Shown one piece after another: positions 7,201 through 35,040 of a stretch of DNA of 64,000 bases. The notes under the pieces were generated by a model, which had not been told where the DNA came from, searched no databases, and was given only the letters and a program-made list of their open reading frames with translations. Position 1 is the stretch's first letter. Each line of letters starts with the position of its first letter. The stretch comes from Paramacrobiotus metropolitanus. Lineage: Eukaryota; Tardigrada; Eutardigrada; Parachela; Macrobiotidae. The stretch covers positions 1,240,001-1,304,000 of the forward strand of contig NW_026570230.1 in the NCBI RefSeq assembly GCF_019649055.1, in the 5' to 3' direction. The position numbers and the translations under genes are program-made.

Positions 7201-9406
7201 GTCGCCATATGCATGATAAGAAGCCTAGCCTTCCACTGCCACTTGGGGAACGGAAATCGGACATATCTGTGTTTACGGTTGGAAAAGTTTTAGTGTTTTC
7301 GAATAAAGCTAATTGCTTAAATGCAAGTACATCGTGGAATAAATTTGCATGAATTCAGATTGATCATAAAGGTCATTTTCCTCATGGAGAGATGAGTTAC
7401 AACGATCGGCAGGTTTGGGCGAAAGAGATACCGTGCATGTACCCTCTGGATGAACTACCAAAATCCGCTACGAAGATATTAGCGCAGGTCATTTCGCGTT
7501 GCATAATAAGTCGGGTATTACATCGTGCGATTGGTAATCAGGTTTTGCCTTGCAGCTGATTGGGCTGTACCATCAAAATGTAAACACTTTTATTGGAATT
7601 TGTACAGCCTATGACGGTGTCTCCATGCTTTTTCTGGATGAGTATTGCAAGCGCGGCTCTTTACACGACATGCTGTCCACGCAAAAACCTGATCCGGAAC
7701 TGAAAAAGTCATTCGTCCAGGATATAATATTTGTAAGCAAATTTAACATATGTCATCGCATCATCATGTCATTACATAAGCGATAAATAATTTTTAGGGA
7801 TTGCGTTTTCTTCACGAGGCGACCGTAAAGATGCATGGATTTTTAACCAGTTCTTGCTGCCTTATTGATGGGCGGTTTATCCTGAAAATTGCTAAAGTAT
7901 GCCAACACAAGGTCACTAAGATTCTCAGCGGCGCACAGAAATCAAGGAATTTCAAATTTGCGGACCTATTTTGGACTGCACCAGAGCGTATACTCCAAGC
8001 CGGAAAAGCTGAGCCGACGCAAAAGAGCGATATCTATTCAATGGCCATAATTATTGCCGAAATTTACATGGGAACGCTTTTGTATAATCAGCCTCCTGAA
8101 GGTACGAGTATTTCACATGTCTAACTGAGATTCAGGAAACAAGAGTTTGTGCTTGCAGATTTATACGAACAGATTACTGTTGCCAAAAATATTTCTTGCC
8201 GGCCGTTTATTGATCATTCTCATGTGCCCGATGACCTTATTCCGGTGCTTCAAAACTGCTGGCACGAAAAACCAACAAGTCGACCAACCATACAGCAAGC
8301 TCAGACTAGTATTTTTCGTAAACTCATCATATCTGGTCGGGATAAATTAGTGGATAAGATGTTGAAACGCCTGGAGACATATTCTGAAGATCTGGAGGTC
8401 AGGGTGTACGAGCGCACACTGGAGCTTCAACGTGAACAGAGAGAAAGCGATTCCTTATTAGCTGAAGTCTTTCCCAAGTAAGACATCGTATGCCGTACTA
8501 TCTTCCCCCTTACAATCTCTTGCAATACTTTCTAGATCATTCGTCCAAAGACTGAGGATGCGAGAATACATCAAGCCAGAAATGTTTGAGCAGGTTTGTA
8601 GTGACCACCAAAATATGCGTTAATAAAGCTGTTGAGGCGATTTGCCTTTAGGTGACAGTCTACTTCAGCGATATCATCGGATTCGCCGAGATTGTCAACA
8701 CAGCCACGCCCTACGAAGTCATAAGTTTTTTGGGTAGTACGTATGCTGCGTTTGATCAAATTATTCCGTCGTTCGATGTATACAAAGTGGAGACCATAAA
8801 CGATTCTTATGTGGTAGGAATATACAGTGCAGTACTTAGTTCTGCTTTCAGAACAAAAACGCTGCTGTATTTTTGTAGGTGGCCAGTGGACTGCCGATCA
8901 AGAACGGTGACAACCATGCACTGGAAATAGTCGCCATGGCTTGTTTTTTGATGAAGGTCTACTACAAGTCAATCTTCCGTGGAGAAACCGATTTACGGAT
9001 AGGCATACACACGGGTAGGACAGCCACCGTTTTAATCTGGAAAAGTTATTCAAAGTCATCTTTCTAACGTTTGCAGGACCTCTTGCGGCGGGGATTGTTG
9101 GGACCAAAGCTCCACGTTATTGTTTGTGAGTATACAGCTTTTTATCTGATTTTATTATGGTGGACTCCGCGGTCCGTAGACAAAACGTTGTTGATTTTCG
9201 GCAGATTTGGTGATACCATGAACACGGCCAGCAGAATGGAAAGCCACGGTGAGGCTGGTCGAATTCACATCAGCAGCCAGACGGCTGCTCTTATTGGTTC
9301 TGCCGCCAAATTTGTTCTACAGCCGCGCGGTCATACTGTGATTAAAGGAAAGGGCGAGATGTTCACATTCTGGTTGGAATGGCATTTAAGCTTTTTGGAT
9401 AGTTAG
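4226..9406 (+). CDS. Receptor guanylyl cyclase 1 (GC1)
   Basis: This is a single-pass receptor predicted to convert GTP to cGMP, about 1073 residues. Exons: 4226-4571, 4712-4750, 4838-4862, 5225-5544, 5607-5650, 5724-5762, 5827-5904, 5968-6114, 6189-6239, 6297-6479, 6557-6683, 6929-7010, 7073-7277, 7359-7487, 7556-7732, 7798-8101, 8159-8477, 8536-8593, 8652-8813, 8879-9014, 9077-9125, 9205-9406. Order: signal peptide (LLIIIMCVML), ANF-receptor-like ectodomain, one membrane helix (VVATVCALLFLLLGF), kinase-homology domain with VWAKEI and FWTAPE but no HRD or DFG, coiled-coil dimerisation linker, and class III cyclase domain. Catalytic FSDIIGF, KVETIND and LFGDTMNTASRME keep both metal aspartates, the guanine-selecting glutamate and the transition-state Asn and Arg. 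The glycine of ETIGD is Asn. The exon 5 donor is GC-AG (gcaagt). It is the first of three direct tandem paralogues. Ligand unknown. Confidence 0.93.
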
Positions 9407-14100: not shown

Positions 14101-16616
14101 GTTAACCGGCATATGCGCCATTAATTTAGGTAGCAGTAAATTGACATTTTCTGTATCCAATCACGTGTACTGATTCACGACGCATCTTCTTCAGGGAACC
14201 AAACCAGATTGATTGTACAATCAAGTACAATCGCATTAGCGGTGATTATTGTTCTCCTTGTTGCTGTTTTTATGATTGCAAGGTACGCCAGATAATGATC
14301 CTCGTGACAGTTATGCCATTTTTCGGATGCTATTATGTTTTTAATATGCAGCTGATACTTCTATACGTGTAAACGTACAGAGTACGTGTAAACTAGTGAG
14401 AAATTTACTGTTTAACGTTTTTATATTAGGAAAATTTACTCTGAACTGCATCTGCGAAGTATATCATGGGAATTTTCGCCCGGAACGCAGGTCCAAATCA
14501 ATAACAAATCATTATCGGTAATCATTATTTTGCGTTGTTTATCGGTCATGGCTATCGATGATGATCAAACGGCTGCGTCATTTTATCCTTCCAGTTTAAA
14601 ACTGGAGTAGATTAATAACAACGGTTTCATCGCATATTTTCAGAATAATGGACCGTTCTATGGAAAAGTCATGCTCCACAATCAGATCTATTTTGCGATG
14701 ACCGTATCTTACGATTCTTCCATTAACGAGCAATCTCTTCGCAATTCCATTAATAGAAGGAAATGCATAGAGTTTGTGGACAGTGTGTGTGACTTTGCGT
14801 CTGCGAGTTAATGAATTTTAACCTATCAATAACGAAACAAACAACGTTGTAGCTGCTCACAATGGACTCTCCCAGTGTAGTTCGCTTCTTTGGAATTACG
14901 CTGGCCCCATCCACTTTCAGCATTATATACGAAAAGTGCCACCGAGCAAATTTAAGGAAACTTCTTGATGCCCCGCAGATTCCTTTAGATGACGAATTTA
15001 AACTGTCTCTAATTATGAATCTATTGCAGGTAACTGATGTTGCTACAAATCATGTGGTTTATATTTTGATTACGCTCAGAACTGCAGGGTGTTGCTGCTA
15101 TCCACGCCCATCCGACGATTAAATTCCATGGATCCTTGTGTTCTTATTTGTGTGGCATTACTAATCATTTTGGATTGAAAATTTGTGGTCTTGGATGTGA
15201 CCGATTATTGCAATACACCGGCCTGAATCGCGGCACTCACTTGCTTGGTGACCTTTTTACATTTCCTGAGAGCGGCGAAACAAGAGTCCAAATTACTGAT
15301 CGCAGACCGAATGACATTTACGCCGCTGGAGCAATTTGCACCGAAATTTTTACGGAACGTGTTGTCCTTAAAAGCGACAGAGAGCATTTAATTACTTTAG
15401 TTGGTAAAGCAGGCAAACGTTTACAATTTACTCCTGGTATGCCCATCAAATTACAGTAAAATTTGTAATTTTATTTCAGCTAATCTTCCACCAAAAGAAA
15501 ATCTGAAGTACGGAGCAGTTCTTCTGTCTTGCTTTGATAGCGACGCAACGCGTCGTCCGACGGTTAAAAAATTAAAACAAGCATTTTCCCCTAAACGGAA
15601 GAAAGTCACAGTTATGGAGAGATTACTGCAACGTTTAGCTAAGTATTCTATGGAACTGGAACATCTGGTCGGTTTAAAAACTCAGGAATTACTTCTGGAA
15701 CGAAGCAAATGCGATGAGATTCTACTGCATATACTACCAGCGTAAGTACATGATTTAAAGTAGAATCAGAAATGGAAATATACATGACATTCTTGTAATT
15801 TCAGAGCCGTAGTGGAAGCGTTGCGTAAACACGAGAAAATACTACCCGAACCTTTCGACTCCGTAACGATAATGTTCAGCGATATTGTTGGATTCGTACA
15901 ATTTGTCGCATCCGTAACGCCGTACCAAGTCATCGAGTTCCTGAATACAGTGCACGGCCTTTCGGATAAAATAATATGTGATTTTGACGTTTACAAAGTT
16001 GAAACGATAGGCGATATTTACTTCGTAAGTACCAGCACTAAACATAACAAAAGAAGTAATGGAGGCAAGCTGAATGAGTTATCAGCAGTATTTGTTTTTC
16101 AGATTGTGAGCGGCTTGCCAGTGAGGAATGGCATCACACATGCAGCGGAGATTTGCTACACAGCTGTCACCTTTTTGCAAGTCTTCAGCACTAAATTACG
16201 AAGTTTTGACGAATCAATGGCTATTCGGATTGGAATACATACTGGCAAGAAACGTGATACTCTAGGATTGGTTTGTTTTCTTAGTAACAACTTATCGGTA
16301 ACCTTTTAGAAGGTCCTTGTATTGCTAGCGTGGTGGGTCTACAGCGTCCACGCTATTGCCTGTAAGTTGACAAAAACAAACAAAAAACAAAGGAGATAAG
16401 TATATTTATATTAGCGTTCGCAGGTTTGGAGACACGGTGAACACAGCATCCAGAATGGAGTCGTGTGGCGAACCAAACCGCATTCATATCAGCCCCATGA
16501 CTACGGAGTTAATAAGGAATAACACAGCATTTCGATGTGTGCTTAGAGGTTCTATTCTGGTTAAAGGCAAAGGAGAAATGACAACGTTCTGGCTTGAAAA
16601 ACGTGACCTTTTGTAG
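11129..16616 (+). CDS. Receptor guanylyl cyclase 2 (GC2)
   Basis: Paralogue of GC1, about 1052 residues. Exons: 11129-11477, 12038-12079, 12230-12254, 12328-12632, 12691-12734, 12808-12850, 12903-12970, 13042-13125, 13266-13412, 13478-13528, 13683-13868, 13991-14129, 14195-14282, 14430-14517, 14644-14784, 14853-15029, 15088-15403, 15480-15741, 15805-16024, 16103-16244, 16313-16361, 16424-16616. Order: signal peptide (FCIIFFVLFLCLF), ANF-receptor-like ectodomain, membrane helix (IALAVIIVLLVAVFMI), kinase-homology domain, coiled coil, cyclase. The cyclase motifs are the most canonical of the four: FSDIVGF, KVETIGD, YCLFGDTVNTASRME. The pseudokinase region is the most decayed of the four: the APE position reads FPE and the beta-3 lysine region reads YFAMTV. 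Two donors are GC rather than GT (after 12079 and after 16244). Start chosen at MYSVF because a hydrophobic signal follows at once. Confidence 0.92.
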
Positions 16617-22200: not shown

Positions 22201-24399
22201 TTGCTTCAGAATGTTCACTATCACGGCCACATGTCATACATGGGAAAGCAAGTGTGGGTCAAACCGCTGCAGACTCCGGATCATCATTTCCATCATTTTC
22301 GCCAAATATCCAAGCTGCTGACATCTGTAATACAAAACTGCTTTAGACCGCTATCGCACTCACACGTTATCGCACGCACTAAAGCTTGCTTTGCATTTAT
22401 AGTTAAGCTTGATGAGCAGCGAGAACGTCACCGCTTTCATCGGGATGTGCTACAATCACGATAAAACTTGCATGTTGCTATTGGACGACTACTGTCCTCG
22501 GCATTCACTTCACGACAACTACGCCCAATTACATTCCGTTAGTGAACTGAAAAGTTCTTTCGTTCAAGATCTCCTCAAGGTAACTGTCCGATTTTAAATT
22601 CTTCAAAGCAGTAAGCGCATAGCCGGTACGACGCTAAACTCTGTGAATCTTCGCAGGGAATGAAATTCATCCATGAATCGTCGCGCAAAAGCCATGGATT
22701 CTTGACCAGTTACTCCTGCCTGCTAAGCAAAAACTTTACCTTAAAAATTGCTAAACTGGCATACGCTCAAGTCAAATCATTGCTCAATCACAAGGTCACT
22801 GTCCTAAAGTTTGATCTGGGGAACGATCAAGAGATCTTTTGGACAGCGCCCGAAGTTTTGCGGGGTTTAAGCTATCCCAACCAAAAGTGTGATATGTATT
22901 CGTTGGGGATCATATTGAATGAAATCTTCATGGCTGAACCTCCATATTCAGATCTGTTCTTGACACCAAAAGGTCACCTATTACCTGTTCCAAAATTACC
23001 GTTAAGGTATTCACTGATGTCTAATTTGCAGACGTTTATCAGAAAGCCGCGTTGTCCCATTATTCGGAAACCTATCGTCCGCGCACTGAAAGCCGAATGA
23101 TGGACCACTCCATGAAGGATTTGATCGAGCAATGTTGGCATGAAGTCCCTGAAAAGCGTCCTAACATACAGAAGCTGTACAGAGCCCTTGGTGAGATAAT
23201 GGATTTGAAGCAGTCGGATTCCCTTGTCGGACGGATCCTTAACCGTCTGCAAGTGTATGCAACGGATCTGGAAATTAAGGTGCAACTGCGAACGGCTGAT
23301 CTCATCAGTGAGCAAAAGCTCTGTGACGCTCTTCTGCAAGAAATGTTGCCCAAGTAAATCAAATACGAGCGATGAAGGTAAAAAGTGCGGCACTGCGTCA
23401 TCGCCTACCGGATGTGTTTTTTTTAGATCGGTGGTGGAGCGGTTACGCGCACAAGAACACGTACAGCCTACCAATTTTAGTCAAACAACTATTTACTTTG
23501 GGGATTTGCTGGGATTCAGTGACTTTGCGTCGTCTGCCACACCCTTTGCCGTTGTGACGTTCCTCAATACGGCATATTCGCACTTTGACAACATGATCTC
23601 TACGTATGACGTGTATAAAGTGGAAACTATAGGCGATTGTTACGTGGTAAGCTTAAAACCTGCAAAGATAATGCTGACAGAAAATAGATTTTGATGAGTT
23701 ATCTTTGAGCAGGTGGCTAGCGGTCTTCCGGAGCCAAATGGAGAAAAACATATTACGGAAATTGCCTCAATGGCGTGTCGATTGGTGCAGGAGTATGAAA
23801 ACGTAACCTTTCGGTATAATACCCGACTGCGAGTCGGCATCCACTCAGGTTGGTTAGAGCATGGAGTGGTCCCTGCATATTCCGCTCGCCATTTAATTGC
23901 TCATGGCATTTTCTTTCCAGGAACCGTTGTTGCTGCCGTTGTCGGAAAAGCGATTCCCCGTTACTGCTTGTAAGTCTTCGAAAGTATTTTTATGCTTGTA
24001 AGTATTTTTTGGGCACCAGAATGATCAGTTTTATATGCGACACAGTGGAAGCCTTCCTTGTGTAGTTGAACTATTTGGTTTCAGCTAGACTACGTTTGAA
24101 CTCAATCGTGTTTAAACGGTGTTTGGTTATATGAATGCAGATTCGGAGATACAATGAATACTGCTAGCCGAATGATGAGCCATGGCCAAGCTGGCAAAAT
24201 CCACATCAGTCCGGAATCGGCCTTCTTGTTGAAATCAAATGCCAGTTTTTGCTTGACACCCAGAGGCAGCACTCACATAAAAGGAAAAGGTGACATTTAT
24301 ACGTTCTGGTTGGATGCCTCCAAGAATTCACAGAGGCGAAGTGATTGCCGTTCAGTTACCGAAATTCTGATGTTCGCTAACATTTCTTCTTGTGGGTGA
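19204..24399 (+). CDS. Receptor guanylyl cyclase 3 (GC3)
   Basis: Third tandem paralogue, about 1082 residues. Exons: 19204-19526, 19912-19943, 20058-20082, 20207-20520, 20576-20619, 20686-20727, 20842-20934, 21012-21161, 21224-21274, 21349-21531, 21610-21751, 21815-21896, 21958-22129, 22210-22326, 22403-22579, 22657-22972, 23032-23353, 23427-23646, 23713-23848, 23921-23969, 24141-24399. Order: signal peptide (WLWCWLFFGAAHC), ANF-receptor-like ectodomain, membrane helix (VTALAIAILAGIGGFAY), kinase-homology domain with VWVKPL and FWTAPEVL, coiled coil, cyclase. The first metal motif is FGDLLGF (Asp kept, Ser to Gly), the second KVETIGDCYV, and NTASRMM replaces NTASRME. All key catalytic side chains remain, so activity is plausible. 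The C-terminus extends about 25 residues past the domain and is polar. AATAAA follows near 24474. Confidence 0.93.
19670..19743 (-). repeat. tRNA-like / SINE-type element in GC3 intron 1
   Basis: On the minus strand this 74-base stretch has an A-box-like TAGCCTGGTGG and a perfect B box, GGGTTCGATTCCC, at tRNA spacing. The first five bases, CTCGT, can pair with the last five, ATGAG. Two of seven acceptor pairs are mismatched, so it is more likely a degenerate tRNA gene or tRNA-derived SINE head than a working tRNA. It sits in the intron between GC3 exons 1 and 2, antisense to the gene. Confidence 0.45.
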
Positions 24400-24543: not shown

Positions 24544-27500
24544 CTAGAAAAATCCTCCAAAAAGGCTTGGTTTCCCAGCGGGCTTATTAGGCTTATCGTC
24601 CGGTTTGCCAGGTTTGTCGTCGGGTTTGCCGGGACCTTTTGGTTTATCGTTGCCAAATAGCCAGCTTGCACCGGCATCAATGAGACCGCTCACTGGCTTG
24701 GATGCCACACCAGACACTGCCGAAATCACTTCGTCTTTGGCCGCGTTGTAGGCATCGGTGACCGCTTTCTTAGCGGTGGATCGGAACCACAGGGTGAGCT
24801 CTGTCATGTTCAGCTGCAGCTGTTTGCCGTTGGGAAGAACCAGGCCCAGGCCAGCTGCATTCTGTTCCATTAAGCTCTTGAGGTTTTCCACCGACATGAA
24901 ACCGGTCAAATCCGGTACAAATACACCGACGTTGTTGAGTGCATTTGCCAGGCCACTGGTCGGGCTGGCGTTGGACGGTTTGCTGCTAGGTGGTGCTGAA
25001 CCAGATGTTCCGGATGTGCCTATGTATTTCACAGTGCTGATGATGAGAATCGAGAATCCGTTGCAAAAAATCAGCATAGTAAAAAGGTCAGTTGTCCATA
25101 ATTTCAGCCGTATACAACAGCGTAATTCAAAAACTGTTGCTTTTGTGGTACTATATTCCGGTTATTAAGGGTCATGACGCACCTGATGTTCCCGAAGTCC
25201 CTGAGGTTCCAGATGTGCCGGATGTCCCGGAGGTCCCTGACGTTCCCGATGTTCCCGCTTGTAGACCCGCCACGACACTTCGCAAACCGCACCCATACAT
25301 CATATTAATGTACGCCCGGCCGGTGGCACTAACGGCACCGACGATGTTCTGTCCAGCAGCGTACAGAGCCTCGATAACGTTTTTGTACGTGCGTACCGGT
25401 CCGGTATGGTTGTAGACCTTGGGTATCCCAGCGCTCACCCGGGATTCAATGCTCATTTCATTTCGCCCGCGGCGAATCTTGACGAATCCCTTGTCACCCC
25501 AGTCAGTGCCCCAAGAATTAGCTACCAACCAGTACGGCTTGTTGGATTCAACGCCCCAGCCAAGGACTTTCATAGCATGAAAGCCGGTTCGCTCGCCTGA
25601 TGCGGGATCGTGCTCGTAAACCCCTTAAAATATTAGAGAATACAAAAATATTTACAAATTATCATTAAAACAAAAAGGTCGTCTGCCAAAAAAGTTTAAG
25701 AATAAGAACTTTTTACCAGTTTTGTAAAGCTTGAAATCCGGAAACATCTCCACAACCACGCTGACCGATCCGTTGGTCATAATTTCCAGCTGCATATCGC
25801 GTTCCGTCTGCTGTACATCGACCAATTCCATTCGTTTATCGAACTTGGTGATCATATACCACGATTCACCTGAATTTTGCGAACAAATAAAGCAAATGTG
25901 AATTGGAAAGCCAGTTTTGTCGTTTGACAAGCGACAAGTTCTATAAATTACTGTACGACCTGTATGACCTTACGTATAAACTACCGTAATTTGCACCGAG
26001 CGCGAAGCGCGAGGTGCTGCGATAAGTCTTCGTCAAGAGCATAAAATTTGTCTGACGCCACGGAAAGCGTACGTCACGCTTTTCCAATTCCACAATCCCA
26101 ATACCATTTTCCAGTGGTACTGGCGCTCGCGCTCGTGCAATAATGTGGTTCGCAGCCACCGCTAGTATTACAAAAACATGTAATCGATGCATACGAGCTG
26201 TACTGTAATCGTAAAAACTAATATAGTAAAATTTAATGATACTATAAATTACAAGGTAGCCTCGCGCATCCGCGCTCGGCACTTAAGTACTGGATAGTAT
26301 AGGCTTTGTTTTGGAAAGGTCATTATCTATATATAAAGACTGACGTTCGGAATTTCAGACTTTCTGAAAATTTTAATTTTTCACGTTCTAAAGTTCTGAT
26401 GTTCTGACTTTATAACGTTCTAACGTCCTAACGTTTTGACGTTCTGACGTTGTTACGTTCTGACGTTCTGACATTATGACGTTCTGACGTTCTTACGTTC
26501 TGACTTTATAACGTTCTAACGTCCTAACGTTTTGACGTTCTGACGTTGTTACGTTCTGAAGTTCTGATGTTCTTACTTTATGACGTTCTGACGTTCTAAC
26601 GTATTGACGTCCTAACGTTCTGACGTTCTGACGTTCTAACGTTCTAACGTTCTGATGTTCTAACGCTCTGACGTTCTAACGTTCTGATGTTCTTACTTTA
26701 GGACGTTCTGACGTTCTGACATTATGACGTTCTGACGTTCTTACGTTCTGACTTTATAACGTTCTAACGTCCTAACGTTTTGACGTTCTGACGTTCTAAC
26801 GTTCTGACGTTCTTACGTTCTAACGTTCTGATGTTCTAACGCTCTGACGTTCTAACGTTCTGATGTTCTTACTTTAGGACGTTCTGACATTATGATGTTA
26901 TGACGTTCTTACGTTCTAACGTTCCGATGTTCTTACTTTATAACGTTCTGACGTTCTGACGGTGTTACGTTCTGACGTTCTTACTTTTTGAATTTCTCAC
27001 GTTTTGACGCTCTGAAATACGTTTGGACTTTTGCATGTCGTAATAATATAATATACATATTTTAAGTACCTAAAGAGCAAGTATTTATGCATCCGCTATA
27101 GTCTCCGTGGTTACAGACATTATGTTTTAAAGCACTTTTTATTGCTGTGCAGTGAATAATTTTCCAGGGGTGCTCTTTACGTTTCCTATACTTAAGACCT
27201 GGTGAAACCATCTTCTGACCACTGGTTATTAAAATCAAACAAAAATCTATTGGCACACCTATGGAAAATATAGAATTTTTTAAGACCAAGCTGGACTTAA
27301 ACTGACCACGCGTTATCGAGGAGTTAAAAACGGCGCATAAATACGCTTTGGTCGGTAAGCTTGTATGAATATAAAGATAAAGATATCAACAATAATTCAG
27401 GTACGTGTTTATTGCATATATACCGTAATATCGGTCATCGGCATAGTTGCGGCTGTGGGTAGGCAGGCATCCTTTCAAGCAAGTCGGCGTCGGTGCGCCA

Positions 27501-28360
27501 TCATCCTCATGCGCCGGTTTAATCAGATATGGCATACAGCCGTTGAGTTCCCCATAATTACCACCGGTTACCACACCGTCGGTTACAAAGGAATCGTACG
27601 CCATCTCCACAAGTCCACCTCTGCTGTTAAAAATAATATAAAACTATACTTTAAATTTCATTGAAAATTAAATATCTACTGAAACACCCTGTGATTATTA
27701 AGTAAGGATACAGGAAAACACTTTGAAAATGAAAATATCTACCATCCAGATCCACAAACGGCACACGTTGGACAGCATGTCAGCATATCTTGCGCGGACA
27801 AATGCACAAAGAGGTCTTTATTTTGGGAGAAGATGCACAGCCGGTCAGTTAGCGCTTCTACTACCGTGTGCGCCTAGAAAATGGTTACATTTCAGGTGTG
27901 GATTACAGTTACAGTTACCTTACAAAACGTGTAAGACATACCCAACATGCTCCGCACCCTCCTTGCATACGAATCTGTGCAAGGCTCTGGCATTTCGGCC
28001 ATGCTTTTCTGGCGTCAAATTCATCGGGAATATCGGCATCCTGCAGCTTGGGTGGTATGAATTGTTGCGGCAACATGCCGGCATGTTTCGTATCCAGCCA
28101 TTTAACACCGAGAGCGGATAAGTATGCGACGGGATCGGCCGCTAAATTCTTTCCGGCTTCGAGAATTGTCTTGGCGAGATCTTTGGCTGGTATTGCAACG
28201 GCTGGACTACAAAAATAAGTTATGGCTCTATTTTATTTTGCCGATTTGTTGTATTTGTACTACTGCCCGTTGTTCTTTTTACTCGTACGTACATTGTGAT
28301 GTTGACGTCCAGAGCAGCAGCGCCGCCAATTAGTAATCCCAGTAACATCCACAGCTTCAT
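24544..28360 (-). CDS. Secreted cathepsin B-like cysteine protease with repetitive C-terminal tail
   Basis: About 577 residues. Exons (minus): 28360-28293, 28206-27942, 27873-27743, 27623-27424, 25869-25717, 25623-25183, 25019-24544. All phases fit. Signal peptide ([13 protein letters not shown]), propeptide, then mature enzyme starting near [14 protein letters not shown]. The papain-family triad is visible: Cys in QGGCGACW, His in [10 protein letters not shown], Asn in [11 protein letters not shown]. The occluding-loop region typical of cathepsin B is present ([11 protein letters not shown], then DDRYYG), so carboxydipeptidase and endopeptidase activity in a lysosome, gut or secretion is expected. 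Normal cathepsin B ends near [10 protein letters not shown]. Here about 235 residues follow: a linker, eight or more GTS repeats split by an intron, a helical segment, and two GKPDDKP units before the stop. This tail is not known to me from the family. GC4 lies upstream on the same strand. Confidence 0.9.
25974..26192 (-). other. Signal-peptide-like open exon inside the cathepsin intron
   Basis: An open stretch of 73 codons begins [14 protein letters not shown], a credible secretion signal, and ends at a strong donor (TAC/gtaagg) in phase 0. It lies inside cathepsin intron 4 on the same strand. The main transcript skips it cleanly (phase 1 to phase 1), and its phase does not fit the next cathepsin exon. 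It could be an alternative first exon of a nested gene or chance. Confidence 0.3.
26370..27015. repeat. Satellite of 8-base units (ACGTTCTG) in cathepsin intron 4
   Basis: Roughly 650 bases consist almost wholly of ACGTTCTG / ACGTTCTA units with point variants (ACGTTTTG, ACGTCCTA, ACTTTATA). Longer blocks recur: a segment starting ACTTTATAACGTTCTAACG occurs near 26410, 26504 and 26751, so the array also has a higher-order repeat. No coding potential. Confidence 0.92.
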
Positions 28361-28896: not shown

Positions 28897-31800
28897 CTAG
28901 GCAGCTTCCGTCGAGTGTCCCGTTAGCCAGAATGTCATCATTGCTGTTTTTCCCTAAAAGTCAATTGAGTCATTCAGACAAATATTTTATTTTATTTGGC
29001 ATTTATATTTTATGTCATGTAAAAGAGGATTGCTTACTTTAATATTGACCGTTCCTCTGGGTTCGATGTCGAAAGAACCAACCGATCGAAGCAGTTTTTC
29101 GGTACTACTGCTCAAGTGGATTCTGGACGCTACAATGTTAGCAATGTACTCGTAGTTCGCTAAAGGTTGACATGAATGCCGAATGGGAAACATATTGGCC
29201 GGTACTCTTAAACAGTCTCGAATCTCGATTAATACTTTATTACAGGTTATAATTGTAAACATTATGGTAAATTATTATTGCTACCTTCGCCATGACTTTC
29301 CATTCGGCTTGCGGTGTTAATCGTATCGCCAAATCTGCATCAATAAACCAATTTGTGGAAAGCGTTATTTACAATTTTTGCGTGGTTCCTGATAATTCTG
29401 AAGGATGTTAACCCAGTAAAATACAGAAAGGAGAATAAACGGCCGATTTTTACGTTTGCGACAAACGTAAAAAGGAATGAATATTGTATTCAGGACTGAC
29501 TGAATATTGTCACAAACGTACAAGCAATATCGTGGCATGCGAGTTCCAACTACTCCTGCCGCGCAAGGACCTAGGAGTATAAACAAAATCTTTTTACAAC
29601 TGCCTTTTACCAACGATATATTAAAAAAGGTTTTACCGGAGTGGATTCCTATGCGGACCTCTAAACTGGTTTTGGTCCTTGTGTGAAGCAATAGCACGCT
29701 TGAATGCCATACCGCCAGGAGATCCAACGCTGTATCCGCAATTTCTTTACCGTGGCGGTAACCATTGCGAATAGGAAGCCCGCTTGCTACCTACGTACGT
29801 ACTTGAAACTGTTGATCGAGAACATTTTACAGATTGTGTAACTCTGTACCATGTAGGAGTCCTTAATGGTTTCGATTTTATAAACATCATGTTGGAGAAT
29901 CGTTTGGTCAAATGTGAAGTAAACGGTATTCAATAGCGTCACAACGTCTTGAGGTAATGAACTAGCGCAATATGTGTCAAAGCCGACCAGAGTGCTAAAG
30001 AAGACGGTAACCAGTTTGTAATGCTCAACCGGGATTGGTTCTTTGTTGCGGAGTTTGGAGACATAGATGCTGTAACAATAGCAAATCTCAGTTATTTTAT
30101 TTTGTGGATAGACACTTTCGAAATCATAAGTGACCTTTCATGCGTCCGTACCTTGGTATCATTTCACCCAAAAGTGAGTCGACCTTCTGCGTTTCAGCCA
30201 GGAGTTCGTGTGCGCGACTGGCTACCATCGCTTCGAGTTGTGCAGAGTAGGCTTGCAGTCGCGTAAGGATGTCGTCAACGATGCTAACACCGCTGTCAAA
30301 GGTCTTTAAGCGCGAAGCTATTGTGTGAAGGGACGGCCGTTCCATGTCGTCGAAGGCTATGCAACCCGCCATAATCGTGCGTATCTTCTCTGGAAGCGGA
30401 CCCATATCGTTCGGTTTGAAGGGAGAAATCCTTGTTCGGCTGGCTAGTTTCGGCAGCATTTCTGTAATAAAAACCCAATAGTGTGAATCCATAAAATATC
30501 TTGATACAGAGGCTTCGATGGATCCGTGATAATTATAATTGTAGAATTTTGATGTGACTCCATAGACACTCTTACCTTCTATCTCAACGGAATCTTTTAG
30601 GTTCATTCTGTACGGTGTCAGTCCCGTCATGATCTCACCCATCACAATACCAAACGAAAAAATATCTGCAATTCTTGAGCCCTCTTTGGAAGCACCAGCA
30701 TGCTGTTCAGGAGCATCCCATAACAGTTCCATGCGGTTGGCTACAATAGACTGATAACCAACGGAAGAAAGCAGGCGTTTGGATGCATAACCAGAAAGTT
30801 TTACGGCAAAACGGTTATCGAGAAGGGTACTCAAGGAAGACAAGGATCCATGACATTTCAGCCGGGAAGCGTGTAAATAGGAAAGCCCCTTCGCACAATA
30901 TTGCGTAATGCGAACCAGTTACTCAGGATCTTAAGATATTTATTTCAAACTTACTGCAAGGATTTCGTGCATTAAACGAAGTTGTATCTTCTGATTTAGC
31001 AGATTGGCCTTATCGTCTAATAGTTGGCGTAAGCAACCACGCCCATAAGGCCAAAGAAACGACAGCTGCTCGGGCGAGACAACGACACCCGTAAGGGTGC
31101 CGGCATTGTCTTGTGAAATGGACTTCATCTGCAACAACATGTTTTCATTAATTTCAAAAACATATGTCCTTTGGAATTGTTTATCACTTACATCTGCTAG
31201 AATATGGCGGAACTCGGAGTTCGCCGTCAGCGCTCCTGTTGTTGTGGCAATGTCTACTGTATAGGCCCAAACTCGTCGGGAATCAAAGGTCACCACCGGT
31301 TCTCGCGGTTTCGCCGGCAGACGAAATATGTTTTGCGAAGCACCGGAGAGTCTGGATGCCCTTGAGGATTTAATCAATCCCGTTGTCGGATTTGGATTGG
31401 TTATCACCAACAAGCTTGAGCTGAGATTCCACCAGATCGAATATCGCTCCTGATGGCGAACGTATTTCCAGTAACCCAATGGAATACCCACAGCAGCAGC
31501 CACTATGATCACGAATAATACCGCTCCCACGATTGGAAAGGTCACAGCTGAAATGACAAACGAAGATAGTTACGCACACATTTTTCAAATTAAAAATGGA
31601 ACTTGGTTACCAACTTACAAAGAGGTGGGCTGCATTGGTCATCTCGAAACCCACAAGCTGGCGTATTGGATGGAAATGTATCGGAACGAAACCAGCTGTG
31701 TGCTTGCGATGACACGTCGGTTATGGAGTTGTTGGTCCAAGTATGATACCATGCTACCTGGTCAATAAAGGTAACCTCTGCGTTTGCGGTATGACCGGTA

Positions 31801-34800
31801 AGCACAACGATTAATTTTAACCAACCTCAAACTCGCCAATAGCTACGTTGAATTTCAAAAAATGGGTGTCGCGGTTGCGCATTCCATTTGGTCCAATGAC
31901 AGTGCTCCGAAATCCAAAGTCGAAAGTGCGGCTCACAAATTTTTTACTGAATTCTCGTCCTGATGTAAAATCTAAATTTGTTTGAGATTCGTTCAGCACC
32001 TGTCCATAACGCAAATGAAAATTAGTGCAGCATAAATATACAAATCATTCGAAGATACGCAGAAATTTGCGTAGGTTCTGACCTCAAAGCCCGCCAGCAC
32101 TGCTTCGAATGCCGATAATGTAATGTCATTATTCTAGAAAAATTCAACGGTACATTAGGTAAACGTGGAACAGCATAAAAACTTTTATGTTATGAGCAAC
32201 TTTTACATATTATTGCTGTAACGACAATTCTTTTACTGAGCAGTTAATGCACATATACAGCAAAATACTGTAGTTAATTATTTGTAAATACGAAGTTTTG
32301 TCTTTGATTGTTCAGCGCATACAATACATACATAATAATCAGGAGGATATGTAAAATTAAAATGGCGCCTTGAGACTTCTCCCACAGAAATGCTGTAATT
32401 TGTGAGTGATTCCCAATCCGGTGGAGGGAATCGAATAACGATTACCGATTGTAGTGCCTCAAACACCGTCTGGCAAATATAAGCACGCAAATTAATTTTA
32501 TAATTGGCCTTAAAAATATTTTATGCATGCATGTATTTTGCAGAAATAGACATCAAAATAGGCTAAAGTTCAGCTGGATATAGAATCGTGCGTTGTAAGG
32601 AAACATGACAGCGTTCAGCTTGCTGATAGATTATGCTGCTACACCGTTTTGACTGTCCATTGTATTCCTGCAGTTCCTACCTTATCGGCAGTGGAATTCA
32701 TTTTCCAGGTCAGTTCGCTCGTTTCCGGCACCTGAATAGACTGTTGGTACAGCCAGACCTAAAGGAACGAGTTCGCATTTCTGTCATGAAGTGGATAAGC
32801 CTTGAATATCTCTTTAGGTATGTATCCTTAAAATAACCGGAAATTAAAACTGAAAGGTCAACAATGAGCAGTTGAACTGGAAACCAGTTGAAAATGAATA
32901 TAAGGGAATATTGAACGCATCAACAGCATCATATGCCAGTATATTCATAATACTCGTAATGTACGAGGCATAAGTTATTAAATCTTCATTGATGATAAGT
33001 ACATATGAACATATAAGAGAATTCATCTGGTCCATGCAGTGATATATTTGGGATCATAATATTATTAGAGAGACAACTTCATGGAGTACTGACGTTGACA
33101 AATCAGAACGCTCATCCTTTTTTCTACAAACAGTTCCCTTTGTATGCTTGTTATAAAATACTCACATAGTCTCGTCCTGTCATGTTTAATTTGCTGGCTG
33201 TAACCTGTTGAAAAATATGTGTTTAGAGATGCTGTGAAATGCATCGATTTATAAATTTTTTTTAATATCGATAATATTGGATCATTTAGACGGTAGAGCT
33301 CGGTTTGACATCTCATTAGACACGTATAACTTAAAATGCACGTGTTTAATTAACTCACCAATATATTCCGCATAATGTCCGCATTGGTTCCGACAAGCAG
33401 AACTGCAAAATGATGCAATCAAAAGAATATTCTTGCACATGTTCGAAAAGTAAACAGCCGTGGATACCGATATGGGCAACAAAAATGTGGCGGCCAATGA
33501 CCGACCGCACCGAAATCATATCAGCTGTTTGTGCACGGCATTTTTTTAAAGCTGTCATTTCTGTACCTCTACTTTGTGATTTTGCTCGTGTAAGAATCGT
33601 TTTAAAATTGGGATTGTTCCGCGAGTCAAACTGCTCGTAGAACATTTGGAATTCTCCCGGAAATTCCGTTAATACACTCTTAAATCCTCGGCAAGCAACA
33701 ATGTACATTGTGGCAGCGCTGGGAAATAAGGAAAGGTCATCGCACAGCACCGTAACCGTTGTCCAAGCAAACTTGCGTAGAAATTCACGAATAGCCCTTG
33801 AACACTGGCCTTGCCCCGCTGAACTGAAGGTCGTCAGAGTGGGATAGCGTTTCCGGTTGGATAGGGCTTGGTCGGCCGATGTACTATCAGTTAATCACAA
33901 TAATAAAATCAAATAAATTTATTCATAACTGTCTAGCGCTTAAAACTCGGAGATGCATGTAATTTCCTTATTAATACCTGAGTGATGCTAATTAACTAAA
34001 TGATCACTAAAGTTAATGTAACATTGTTGTTGGTTTTTGCCCAAAGAATGGAACGGAAATTCGATAGTCTATGACACGAGACCAACCTTGTAAGAAGGGG
34101 AACATCCAATTCTACAAAATATCGAAATCAGTATCATCATGTAGCACAGGCATAACAGGATTGAATTACGTCATATATAAATATTAACGTCAATCTGTAC
34201 TTGTTGTTAGCAGTATCATGCATGCTGTTAATACTTATTATACCTCGCGCGAAATCTCCAAGAGTTATCATTTCTAAGCTGCATCCTGGAAAAGGCGGAG
34301 GAATTAATTAGAACTTCTGTTCAACAAGAAGTGGAGCGCAAAATTGTGTTCTGGGAATTACAACCAAATGGGTTCCTATCATTTACTCAGGAACGTCGAA
34401 AAATTACCGGAACCATTTGACCCCTCCACACCTTCGACCACGATAATGCGTACGCAAATTCTTACGCTTCGTTAACGTTTTTCAGTTATTTTTACAAAAG
34501 GCGTACCCTATTTTTACAAAAGGGGTTTTAATCACACATACATCAAAATTCTCAAAAATTTATACAACATTATCAGCTATATGGACGCATATGATGTCAC
34601 CACCATGCGCACCGCAAAATTAACAACACTAACAAAACAGTGGAAATACGCGCATAAGCAGTGGGCAGTAATAAAAATTACACTGTAATGTTGTTACCTG
34701 GTGAAAGTAGCAGCGTAAATCCCTTAGTCTGAGAAACAATCCTAACAACTTCTCCGGCCATGGCCGGCATCATGTCTCCGGTGTCACCGCAGCCAACGAT

Positions 34801-35040
34801 CCCTTTATCGCTATAGATCATGTGCCGGTGGATATTCGGCGCCAGCTGCGGGTATGCCTGTAATACCGTATCAAAGGCCACCTCAAATACAGGGCCGGAA
34901 GAATAGTATCCATACATGGGATTTTGTCCAATTATAACCGTAATTATCGTGATATTAGTTGTAGCAGCGGGGGAGCCAGCAAGAAATATCAACACCACAA
35001 ATGACGAGACTATTTTAATGCTAACTGAACCGCGGCACAT
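28897..35040 (-). CDS. Receptor guanylyl cyclase 4 (GC4), catalytic Asp replaced by Thr
   Basis: Fourth paralogue, inverted relative to GC1-3, about 1085 residues. Exons (minus): 35040-34698, 34285-34244, 34111-34087, 33883-33567, 33402-33359, 33204-33166, 33026-32925 (tentative), 32731-32681, 32469-32332, 32133-32083, 31999-31826, 31775-31619, 31547-31192, 31128-30955, 30888-30576, 30461-30152, 30069-29850, 29790-29637, 29570-29522, 29334-29285, 29129-29038, 28953-28897. Order: signal peptide, ANF-receptor-like ectodomain, membrane helix (GAVLFVIIVAAAVGIPLG), pseudokinase domain with WDAPEQ, coiled coil, cyclase. The first metal motif reads FFSTLVGF, so the essential Asp is Thr. The second reads KIETIKDSYM (Asp kept, Gly to Lys). 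LFGDTINTASRME is intact. Every frame is open and splice sites are clean, so this is a gene rather than a pseudogene, but homodimeric cyclase activity is doubtful. Confidence 0.9.

What the first reader, a model, noticed from the sequence alone, without database searches (positions are those of the whole stretch)
29850..30069. GC4 has lost the first catalytic metal-binding aspartate (FSD to FST) yet is otherwise intact
The exon reads VFFSTLVGF where class III cyclases have FSDIVGF. This Asp binds the catalytic metals and its loss abolishes activity in known cyclases. Every GC4 exon is open with valid splice sites, so selection has kept the protein. A dead subunit could pair with GC1-3 through the coiled coil, or signal only as a decoy receptor.
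Basis: partly seen in the sequence, partly recalled or inferred. Interest (0 to 1): 0.75.

Follow-up and report, generated by a model that had tools for sequence, protein, structure and literature searches.

The report
Half-site guanylyl cyclase receptor, tardigrade
One of a very large family of membrane receptors in a tardigrade genome has lost one of the two residues that hold the catalytic metal but keeps the rest of its active site, as about fifty of its relatives in the same genome do, which suggests that these receptors work as halves of mixed pairs rather than as dead proteins.

Summary
GC4 is a receptor guanylyl cyclase gene on the minus strand (ATG 35040, stop 28897). Its first metal aspartate is Thr (ACT, 29991-29993); the nearest paralogue has GAC. 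The other catalytic residues read (D2, E, C, N, R) are intact.

It is not unique. In this tardigrade genome 49 of 161 sampled receptor-type loci lack the aspartate (S, A, H, Y, E, I, G or T). These 49 keep E 49, C 48, N 49, R 48, and close pairs among them show dN/dS as low as intact pairs. That active-site pattern is the one of human soluble cyclase beta1. Ten other loci show the reverse, soluble-alpha pattern: both aspartates kept, N and/or R lost. Of 143 loci read on both sides, one has lost both.

Best explanation: GC4 is a beta-type half of a heterodimeric receptor cyclase, giving the purine and transition-state residues while a partner supplies the metals (inferred; no biochemistry). The principle is known from soluble cyclase and proposed for C. 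elegans ODR-1/DAF-11. I saw no report of this scale and of both complementary types in one receptor family in the listings searched. The one-sidedness is suggestive, not decisive, statistically.

The parts
29991..29993 (-). codon ACT (Thr) in place of the first metal-binding Asp (FSD to FST)
   Evidence: nearest paralogue L001 has GAC, GC1-3 have GAT
29850..30069 (-). cyclase exon G1 with the D1 position, Glu for the guanine (29871-29873) and D2 (29859-29861)
   Evidence: residue coordinates counted by hand
29637..29790 (-). cyclase exon G2 (VASGLPIRN...VRIGIHSG)
29522..29570 (-). cyclase exon G3 (GPCAAGVVGTRMPRYCL), guanine-site Cys 29524-29526
   Evidence: residue coordinates counted by hand
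29285..29334 (-). cyclase exon G4 (FGDTINTASRMESHGE), transition-state Asn 29316-29318 and Arg 29304-29306
   Evidence: residue coordinates counted by hand
29038..29129 (-). cyclase exon G5 (SRIHLSSSTEKLLRSVGSFDIEPRGTVNIK)
28897..28953 (-). cyclase exon G6 (GKTAMMTFWLTGHSTEAA, stop)
   Evidence: translation; end counted by hand, the script's own end for this exon ran past the stop
30152..30461 (-). exon K3: end of kinase homology domain and linker towards the cyclase
   Evidence: Pfam kinase match
30576..30888 (-). exon K2: kinase homology domain (GLSYLHASRLKCHGSL...)
30955..31128 (-). exon K1: kinase homology domain
31192..31547 (-). exon T: hydrophobic segment (TFPIVGAVLFVIIVAAAVGIPLGYW) read as the membrane span, and start of the cytoplasmic part
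   Evidence: read by eye, no predictor run
33166..35040 (-). first part of the extracellular region, exons E1 35040-34698, E2 34285-34244, E3 34111-34087, E4 33883-33567, E5 33402-33359, E6 33204-33166
   Evidence: Pfam ANF_receptor E 8.2e-16
8649..8816 (+). GC1 cyclase exon, aspartate kept (YFSDIIGF); possible partner
15812..16030 (+). GC2 cyclase exon, aspartate kept (MFSDIVGF); possible partner
23434..23649 (+). GC3 cyclase exon, aspartate kept (YFGDLLGF); possible partner

Best explanation
GC4 is a receptor guanylyl cyclase whose cyclase domain is a half-site of the soluble-cyclase beta type. A homodimer of GC4 should make little or no cGMP, because neither of its two sites would have the first metal Asp. 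Paired with a receptor that keeps both Asp residues, GC4 supplies Glu and Cys for the guanine and Asn and Arg for the transition state to one working site, and the partner supplies the two metals. Ligand binding outside would then drive one active site per dimer. Shown here: the residue pattern in GC4, its recurrence in the genome, the intact complementary residues, constraint on Asp-less copies, and other receptors in the same genome with both Asp residues. Inferred: that they are in the same cell, that they dimerise, and that the pair is active.
For: GC4 keeps D2, E, C, N and R. Human soluble cyclase beta1 has the same pattern: FSG at the Asp site, GDKYM, KVET, PRYC, VNLTSR. Of 49 Asp-less loci, E is kept in 49, C in 48, N in 49, R in 48, D2 in 47. 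On the tree E, N and R show 0 changes in 48 Asp-less rows (L023 left out), against a median of 13 a column; C also shows 0, but 3 rows are gaps there, among them L133, whose Ser would make it 1. N and R are not indispensable to the fold: 10 loci with both Asp residues have lost N and/or R; L129 (MTIASK) shows the same two changes as the soluble alpha chain of PDB 4ni2 (VTLANK). Of 143 loci read on both sides 1 is broken on both (L023, close to L002). The Arg of RIGIH on the metal side (AC5 Arg484 by my count; label recalled) is Arg in 29 of 48 Asp-less rows and 69 of 74 intact rows, 9 steps against 2. dN/dS of chosen close pairs: Asp-less 0.06-0.22 (7 of 11 calculable), intact 0-0.28 (10 of 13); GC4 with L001 0.23 at dS 1.66. 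Two reviews put forward the same idea for C. elegans receptors (passages).
Against: No expression, dimerisation or activity data. D2 is kept in 47 of 49 Asp-less loci although a pure beta-type half would not need it (soluble beta1 keeps it too). E, C, N and R may be kept for folding; 18 columns of 159 show no change in Asp-less rows. The one-sidedness test is weak: losses on the N/R side 1 of 49 against 10 of 87, Fisher P 0.097 (0.014 only if L023 is left out); with D2-less loci added, 1 of 56 against 10 of 87, P 0.050; seven metal-side positions together 78 against 73 steps, P 0.085; the phosphate-loop Gly changes more in intact rows, 8 against 18. Fisher counts ignore kinship; the independent-pairs test had 3 usable pairs and could not reach significance. 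GC4's own Arg of RIGIH is intact, so GC4 itself shows no relaxation beyond D1. Several dS values are near saturation.
Confidence: 0.6

Rival explanations
1. GC4 and the other Asp-less copies are non-catalytic receptors: decoys, dominant-negative partners or scaffolds. E, C, N and R are kept for folding or for allosteric nucleotide binding.
For: Homodimers should be inactive. Purifying selection fits any function. The kinase homology domain of GC4 also lacks a D(F/Y/H)G motif (FAVKLSGYASKRLL).
Against: N and R can be lost in this family (10 loci), yet 48 of 49 Asp-less loci keep both. A dead receptor should lose them at least as often. The difference is weak statistically.
Confidence: 0.27
2. 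GC4 is still an active homodimer, with the metal held by D2, by water or by another acidic residue.
For: D2 is kept; an Asp follows the loop (VGFD). A review notes that some soluble beta subunits were reported active as homodimers (PMC5225109, passage).
Against: L001 with intact D1 also has VGFD, so this is no replacement; the A and H copies have no Asp at that position. That loss of D1 abolishes activity is recalled knowledge, not tested here.
Confidence: 0.07
3. GC4 is an early pseudogene or an assembly error at one codon.
For: Middle of the extracellular part not resolved into exons.
Against: At least two base changes are needed; 16 modelled exons are open; dN/dS with L001 is 0.23, though at dS 1.66; 48 other loci lack the Asp too.
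Confidence: 0.06

Closest known systems
Soluble guanylyl cyclase beta1 subunit (human, PDB 4ni2 chain B, 6jt0 chain B)
   Same: Active-site pattern: first metal Asp lost (Gly), D2, E, C, N and R kept
   Different: Soluble heme-linked enzyme (recalled); GC4 has an ANF-type extracellular region and kinase homology domain and gave no HNOBA match
C. elegans ODR-1/DAF-11 and other nematode receptors proposed as obligate heterodimers
   Same: Receptor cyclases said to lack Mg-coordinating or GTP-binding residues that a partner would supply (PMC8045692 and PMC5225109, passages)
   Different: 27 receptors in all in C. elegans; here 49 Asp-less loci among 161 sampled. I did not compare their sequences
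Human natriuretic peptide receptor 1 (GC-A)
   Same: Best solved match of the GC4 cyclase domain, E 3.2e-53; same domain order (recalled)
   Different: GC-A keeps the Asp (FSDIVGF); mammalian receptors are homodimers (PMC5225109, passage)
Mammalian adenylyl cyclase C1/C2 halves
   Same: Catalytic site split between a metal half and a transition-state half (recalled; the domains matched)
   Different: Both halves on one chain; C2 has lost both Asp residues (recalled), GC4 only the first

Membership tests
Receptor guanylyl cyclase | ANF-type ligand-binding extracellular region | tested here: met
   Pfam ANF_receptor E 8.2e-16 on exons E1-E6
Receptor guanylyl cyclase | single membrane span | not tested
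   a hydrophobic stretch is read in exon T; no predictor run
Receptor guanylyl cyclase | kinase homology domain | tested here: met
   PK_Tyr_Ser-Thr E 1.7e-20
Receptor guanylyl cyclase | class III cyclase domain | tested here: met
   Guanylate_cyc E 4.8e-57; GC-A is the best solved match
Receptor guanylyl cyclase | all six catalytic residues, as in homodimeric members | tested here: not met
   first metal Asp is Thr; the other five kept
Soluble guanylyl cyclase beta subunit | half-site pattern: first Asp lost, D2, E, C, N, R kept | tested here: met
Soluble guanylyl cyclase beta subunit | HNOBA domain before the cyclase | tested here: not met
   no HNOBA at E 0.001 in the Pfam scan of GC4; no HNOBA match listed on contig C10. 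So it works like beta1 but is not one
Obligate heterodimeric receptor cyclase (ODR-1/DAF-11 type) | lacks a residue that a partner would have to supply | tested here: met
Obligate heterodimeric receptor cyclase (ODR-1/DAF-11 type) | suitable partners in the same genome | tested here: met
   112 of 161 loci keep the first Asp, 97 of them were read as keeping both; 10 of these are N- and/or R-less
Obligate heterodimeric receptor cyclase (ODR-1/DAF-11 type) | activity only on co-expression; shared cells | not testable with these tools
   needs expression data and enzyme assays

The most novel reading that the evidence does not exclude
In this tardigrade lineage a receptor cyclase family of some 160 or more loci has repeatedly split its shared catalytic site: a large changing set of beta-type receptors (metal side broken, 59 loci in the sample) and a small set of alpha-type receptors (transition-state side broken, 10 loci) work in pairs, so that ligand specificity is combinatorial, somewhat as insect odorant receptors share a co-receptor.
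Probability: 0.33. Interest if true: 0.78.

Novelty: new variant of a known kind. Interest (0 to 1): 0.56.

Why it matters
In the passages that I read, obligate heterodimeric receptor cyclases are argued from a few nematode genes. A genome with about fifty half-site receptors, probably several separate losses and both complementary types would make the idea testable at scale: which halves pair, whether loss of one half-site locks a pair into heteromery, and whether such receptors form a chemosensory repertoire. It also warns against annotating 'dead' cyclases one residue at a time.

Tried and rejected
Rejected: single-base error (needs at least two changes). Rejected: replacement Asp in VGFD (L001 with intact D1 has it too). 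Rejected: loss special to GC4. Considered and corrected: an apparent stop at the start of a kinase-homology exon disappears when the intron 30954-30889 is read with its GT-AG ends. An early table showed N and R as kept in nearly every locus found, because weak N/R-less motifs failed the inclusion threshold; N/R-less loci appeared and after more downstream DNA was fetched. Apparent D2 losses at exon ends in 9 loci were artefacts; D2 was read from the next exon in 4 and left unknown in 5. The motif corrections were entered by hand. Pairwise dN/dS on untrimmed exons included intron letters and saturated pairs; it was redone on trimmed exons and on pairs chosen by me. Independent-pairs tests had too few pairs. 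No structure was predicted: I judged that a spliced protein would not be accepted and did not send one. No orthologues were compared: the tool states that G000 has no relatives held, and by their descriptions the other collections hold prokaryotes, viruses, phages and plasmids; I did not search them.

Dropped rows: L147 (adenylyl C1-like), L156 and L157 (other cyclases) were left out of the 164 before the counts; L147 and L156 were still in the tree. L023 was left out of the step counts. N/R unresolved in 18 of 161 loci (15 with no Asp loss read, 3 D2-less), none of them Asp-less at D1. 8 of the 111 Pfam matches that I had picked as covering D1 (out of the 150 shown of 200) were not fetched. 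Some loci may be alleles or assembly duplicates (L016 and L017, L032 and L033, L056 and L057). Weak results: a piece of the alpha-type L039 gene gave a HNOBA match below its cut-off (19.2 bits, cut-off 23.4), and the extracellular piece of L006 an ANF_receptor match below its cut-off (21.2, cut-off 25.4).

Full report
What is there. The window is G000:C10:1240001-1304000 of a 169.8 Mb genome in 533 contigs. Of 14 matches to the tardigrade protein SAHS1, 13 lie together on contig C3 (the query matches PDB 5xn9), which marks it as a tardigrade; that SAHS is confined to tardigrades is recalled. The window holds four receptor-type guanylyl cyclase genes, GC1-GC3 on the plus strand and GC4 on the minus strand. 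GC4 starts with ATG at 35040 and ends at 28897. I modelled 16 exons with GT-AG introns; the middle of the extracellular region was left unresolved. Pfam finds an ANF_receptor region, a kinase homology domain and a Guanylate_cyc domain. The nearest solved protein for the cyclase domain is human natriuretic peptide receptor 1.

The observation. The motif is FFSTLVGF and the codon is ACT at 29991-29993; the nearest paralogue L001 reads GAC, GC1-3 read GAT. D2 (KDSYM), the guanine Glu (KIETI) and Cys (PRYCL), and the transition-state Asn and Arg (NTASR) are present. The roles of these residues are recalled knowledge of class III cyclases; the same positions were read in soluble cyclase chains of the PDB.

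How common is it. A search of the genome with the GC4 exon scored the best 150 of 343 candidates and listed 150 matches, so the family may be larger than the sample. I fetched the 146 outside the window and 14 further places from the Pfam search. In the 164 aligned exons, 114 had Asp at D1. After dropping 3 loci that do not look like receptor cyclases, 49 of 161 lack D1: S 23, A 8, H 6, Y 4, E 3, I 2, G 2, T 1 (GC4). The sample is ranked by likeness to GC4, so the share is biased: it is 48 of 150 in the GC4-exon list and 17 of 100 in the Pfam-ranked list, whose model favours Asp. On a FastTree tree of 163 rows the label needs at least 16 changes, 6 forced by well-supported branches; on an IQ-TREE quick tree of 161 rows 15 and 3. 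GC4 joins L001, which has the Asp (support 93 and 92). On the IQ-TREE tree alone this pair lies beside a group of 14 FSS copies (support 82). So GC4's loss is either its own or shared with that group and regained in L001.

Which side is lost. Each cyclase site takes its metal residues from one subunit and its guanine and transition-state residues from the other (recalled). In the 49 Asp-less loci E is kept in 49, C in 48 (L133 has Ser), N in 49, R in 48 (L023 has Cys), D2 in 47. Ten further loci keep D1 and have lost D2. Ten loci keep both Asp residues and have lost N and/or R: L025, L039, L041, L044, L045, L080, L106, L120, L129, L130. L129 (MTIASK) has the same two changes as the soluble alpha chain of PDB 4ni2 (VTLANK). 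L106 is the least certain of these as a receptor. By position none of the sampled loci lies at one of the 26 HNOBA matches (compared by eye), though a piece of the L039 gene gave a HNOBA score below the cut-off. Of 143 loci read on both sides one, L023, is broken on both; it is close to L002. The split is thus nearly exclusive, but the test against independence is weak: 1 of 49 against 10 of 87, P 0.097; 0 of 48 against 10 of 87, P 0.014 without L023.

Selection and relaxation. Close pairs of Asp-less loci have dN/dS 0.06-0.22 (7 of 11 pairs; 4 were saturated); intact pairs 0-0.28 (10 of 13; 3 saturated); GC4 with L001 0.23 at dS 1.66. Two of the seven Asp-less values rest on dS above 2. Parsimony steps at E, N and R are 0 in 48 Asp-less rows, where the median column has 13; C shows 0 with 3 gaps, and the Ser of L133 would make it 1. 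In all, 18 of 159 columns show no change there, so these residues are not alone in it. The Arg of RIGIH has 9 steps in Asp-less rows and 2 in 74 intact rows (P 0.014, one of seven metal-side positions looked at; the seven together 78 against 73 steps, P 0.085). The Gly of the phosphate loop goes the other way (8 against 18 steps). These results fit a catalytic half better than a dead protein, but they are not proof.

How it most likely works. GC4 should be inactive as a homodimer and serve as the guanine and transition-state half in a pair with a receptor that has both metal residues. GC1, GC2 and GC3 next door have all six residues and are possible partners; so are the N/R-less receptors, for which a beta-type partner would be the natural complement. 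Dimerisation, shared expression and activity are inferred.

What is known. [quoted passage not shown] The other says that a number of C. [quoted passage not shown] The kind is therefore known. A 2006 survey found no homologues of the nematode-specific cyclase genes in tardigrade ESTs (PMC1435932, passages). My searches for tardigrade receptor cyclases and for receptor cyclase pseudoenzymes listed 5 of 5, 6 of 6, 10 of 123 and 10 of 94 papers; no title or abstract start there reports such an expansion in tardigrades. In the comparative genome paper PMC5531438 a term search found 'cyclase' once (adenylate) and 'guanyl' never. The library holds open-licence papers only.

Noticed in passing
L039, L041, L044, L045, L080, L106, L120, L129, L130, L025: Loci with both metal Asp residues but transition-state Asn and/or Arg lost (for example FGDTVQIAQKM), the pattern of soluble alpha chains.
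   Followed up: partly
G000:C68:136162-359302 (L003, L005-L012, L020, L062): Eleven cyclase loci of the sample lie on one strand of this contig and all have FSS in place of FSD: a clustered expansion of half-site receptors.
   Followed up: partly
L038, L055, L056, L057, L065, L071, L092, L134, L150, L159: D1 kept but the second metal Asp lost (7 Ser, 1 each Glu, Ala, Asn), with E kept in 10 of 10 and N and R kept where read: a second way to break the metal side.
   Followed up: partly
L056 and L057 (C1:1328490 and C1:1346860): Identical D1-D2 exon peptides 18 kb apart; for L056 no downstream cyclase exon was found in 2.9 kb. Possibly truncated copies.
   Followed up: partly
30888-30576 (exon K2): GC4's kinase homology domain has no D(F/Y/H)G motif (FAVKLSGYASKRLL), while the alpha-type L039 gene reads ITDFGLNSF. 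PMC8045692 links this motif to basal activity (passage).
   Followed up: no
27386-28360, minus: A cathepsin-B-like cysteine protease gene seems to lie just downstream of GC4 on the same strand (read from the ORFs; name recalled, not tested).
   Followed up: no
26493-26675: An open frame made of tandem copies of a short unit (NVRTLERQ-like).
   Followed up: no
L002 and L023 (C123 and C19): Close copies on two contigs (dS 0.33 over the exon); L023 has Arg to Cys in NTASR and a divergent exon start. Duplicate, allele or decaying copy not decided.
   Followed up: no
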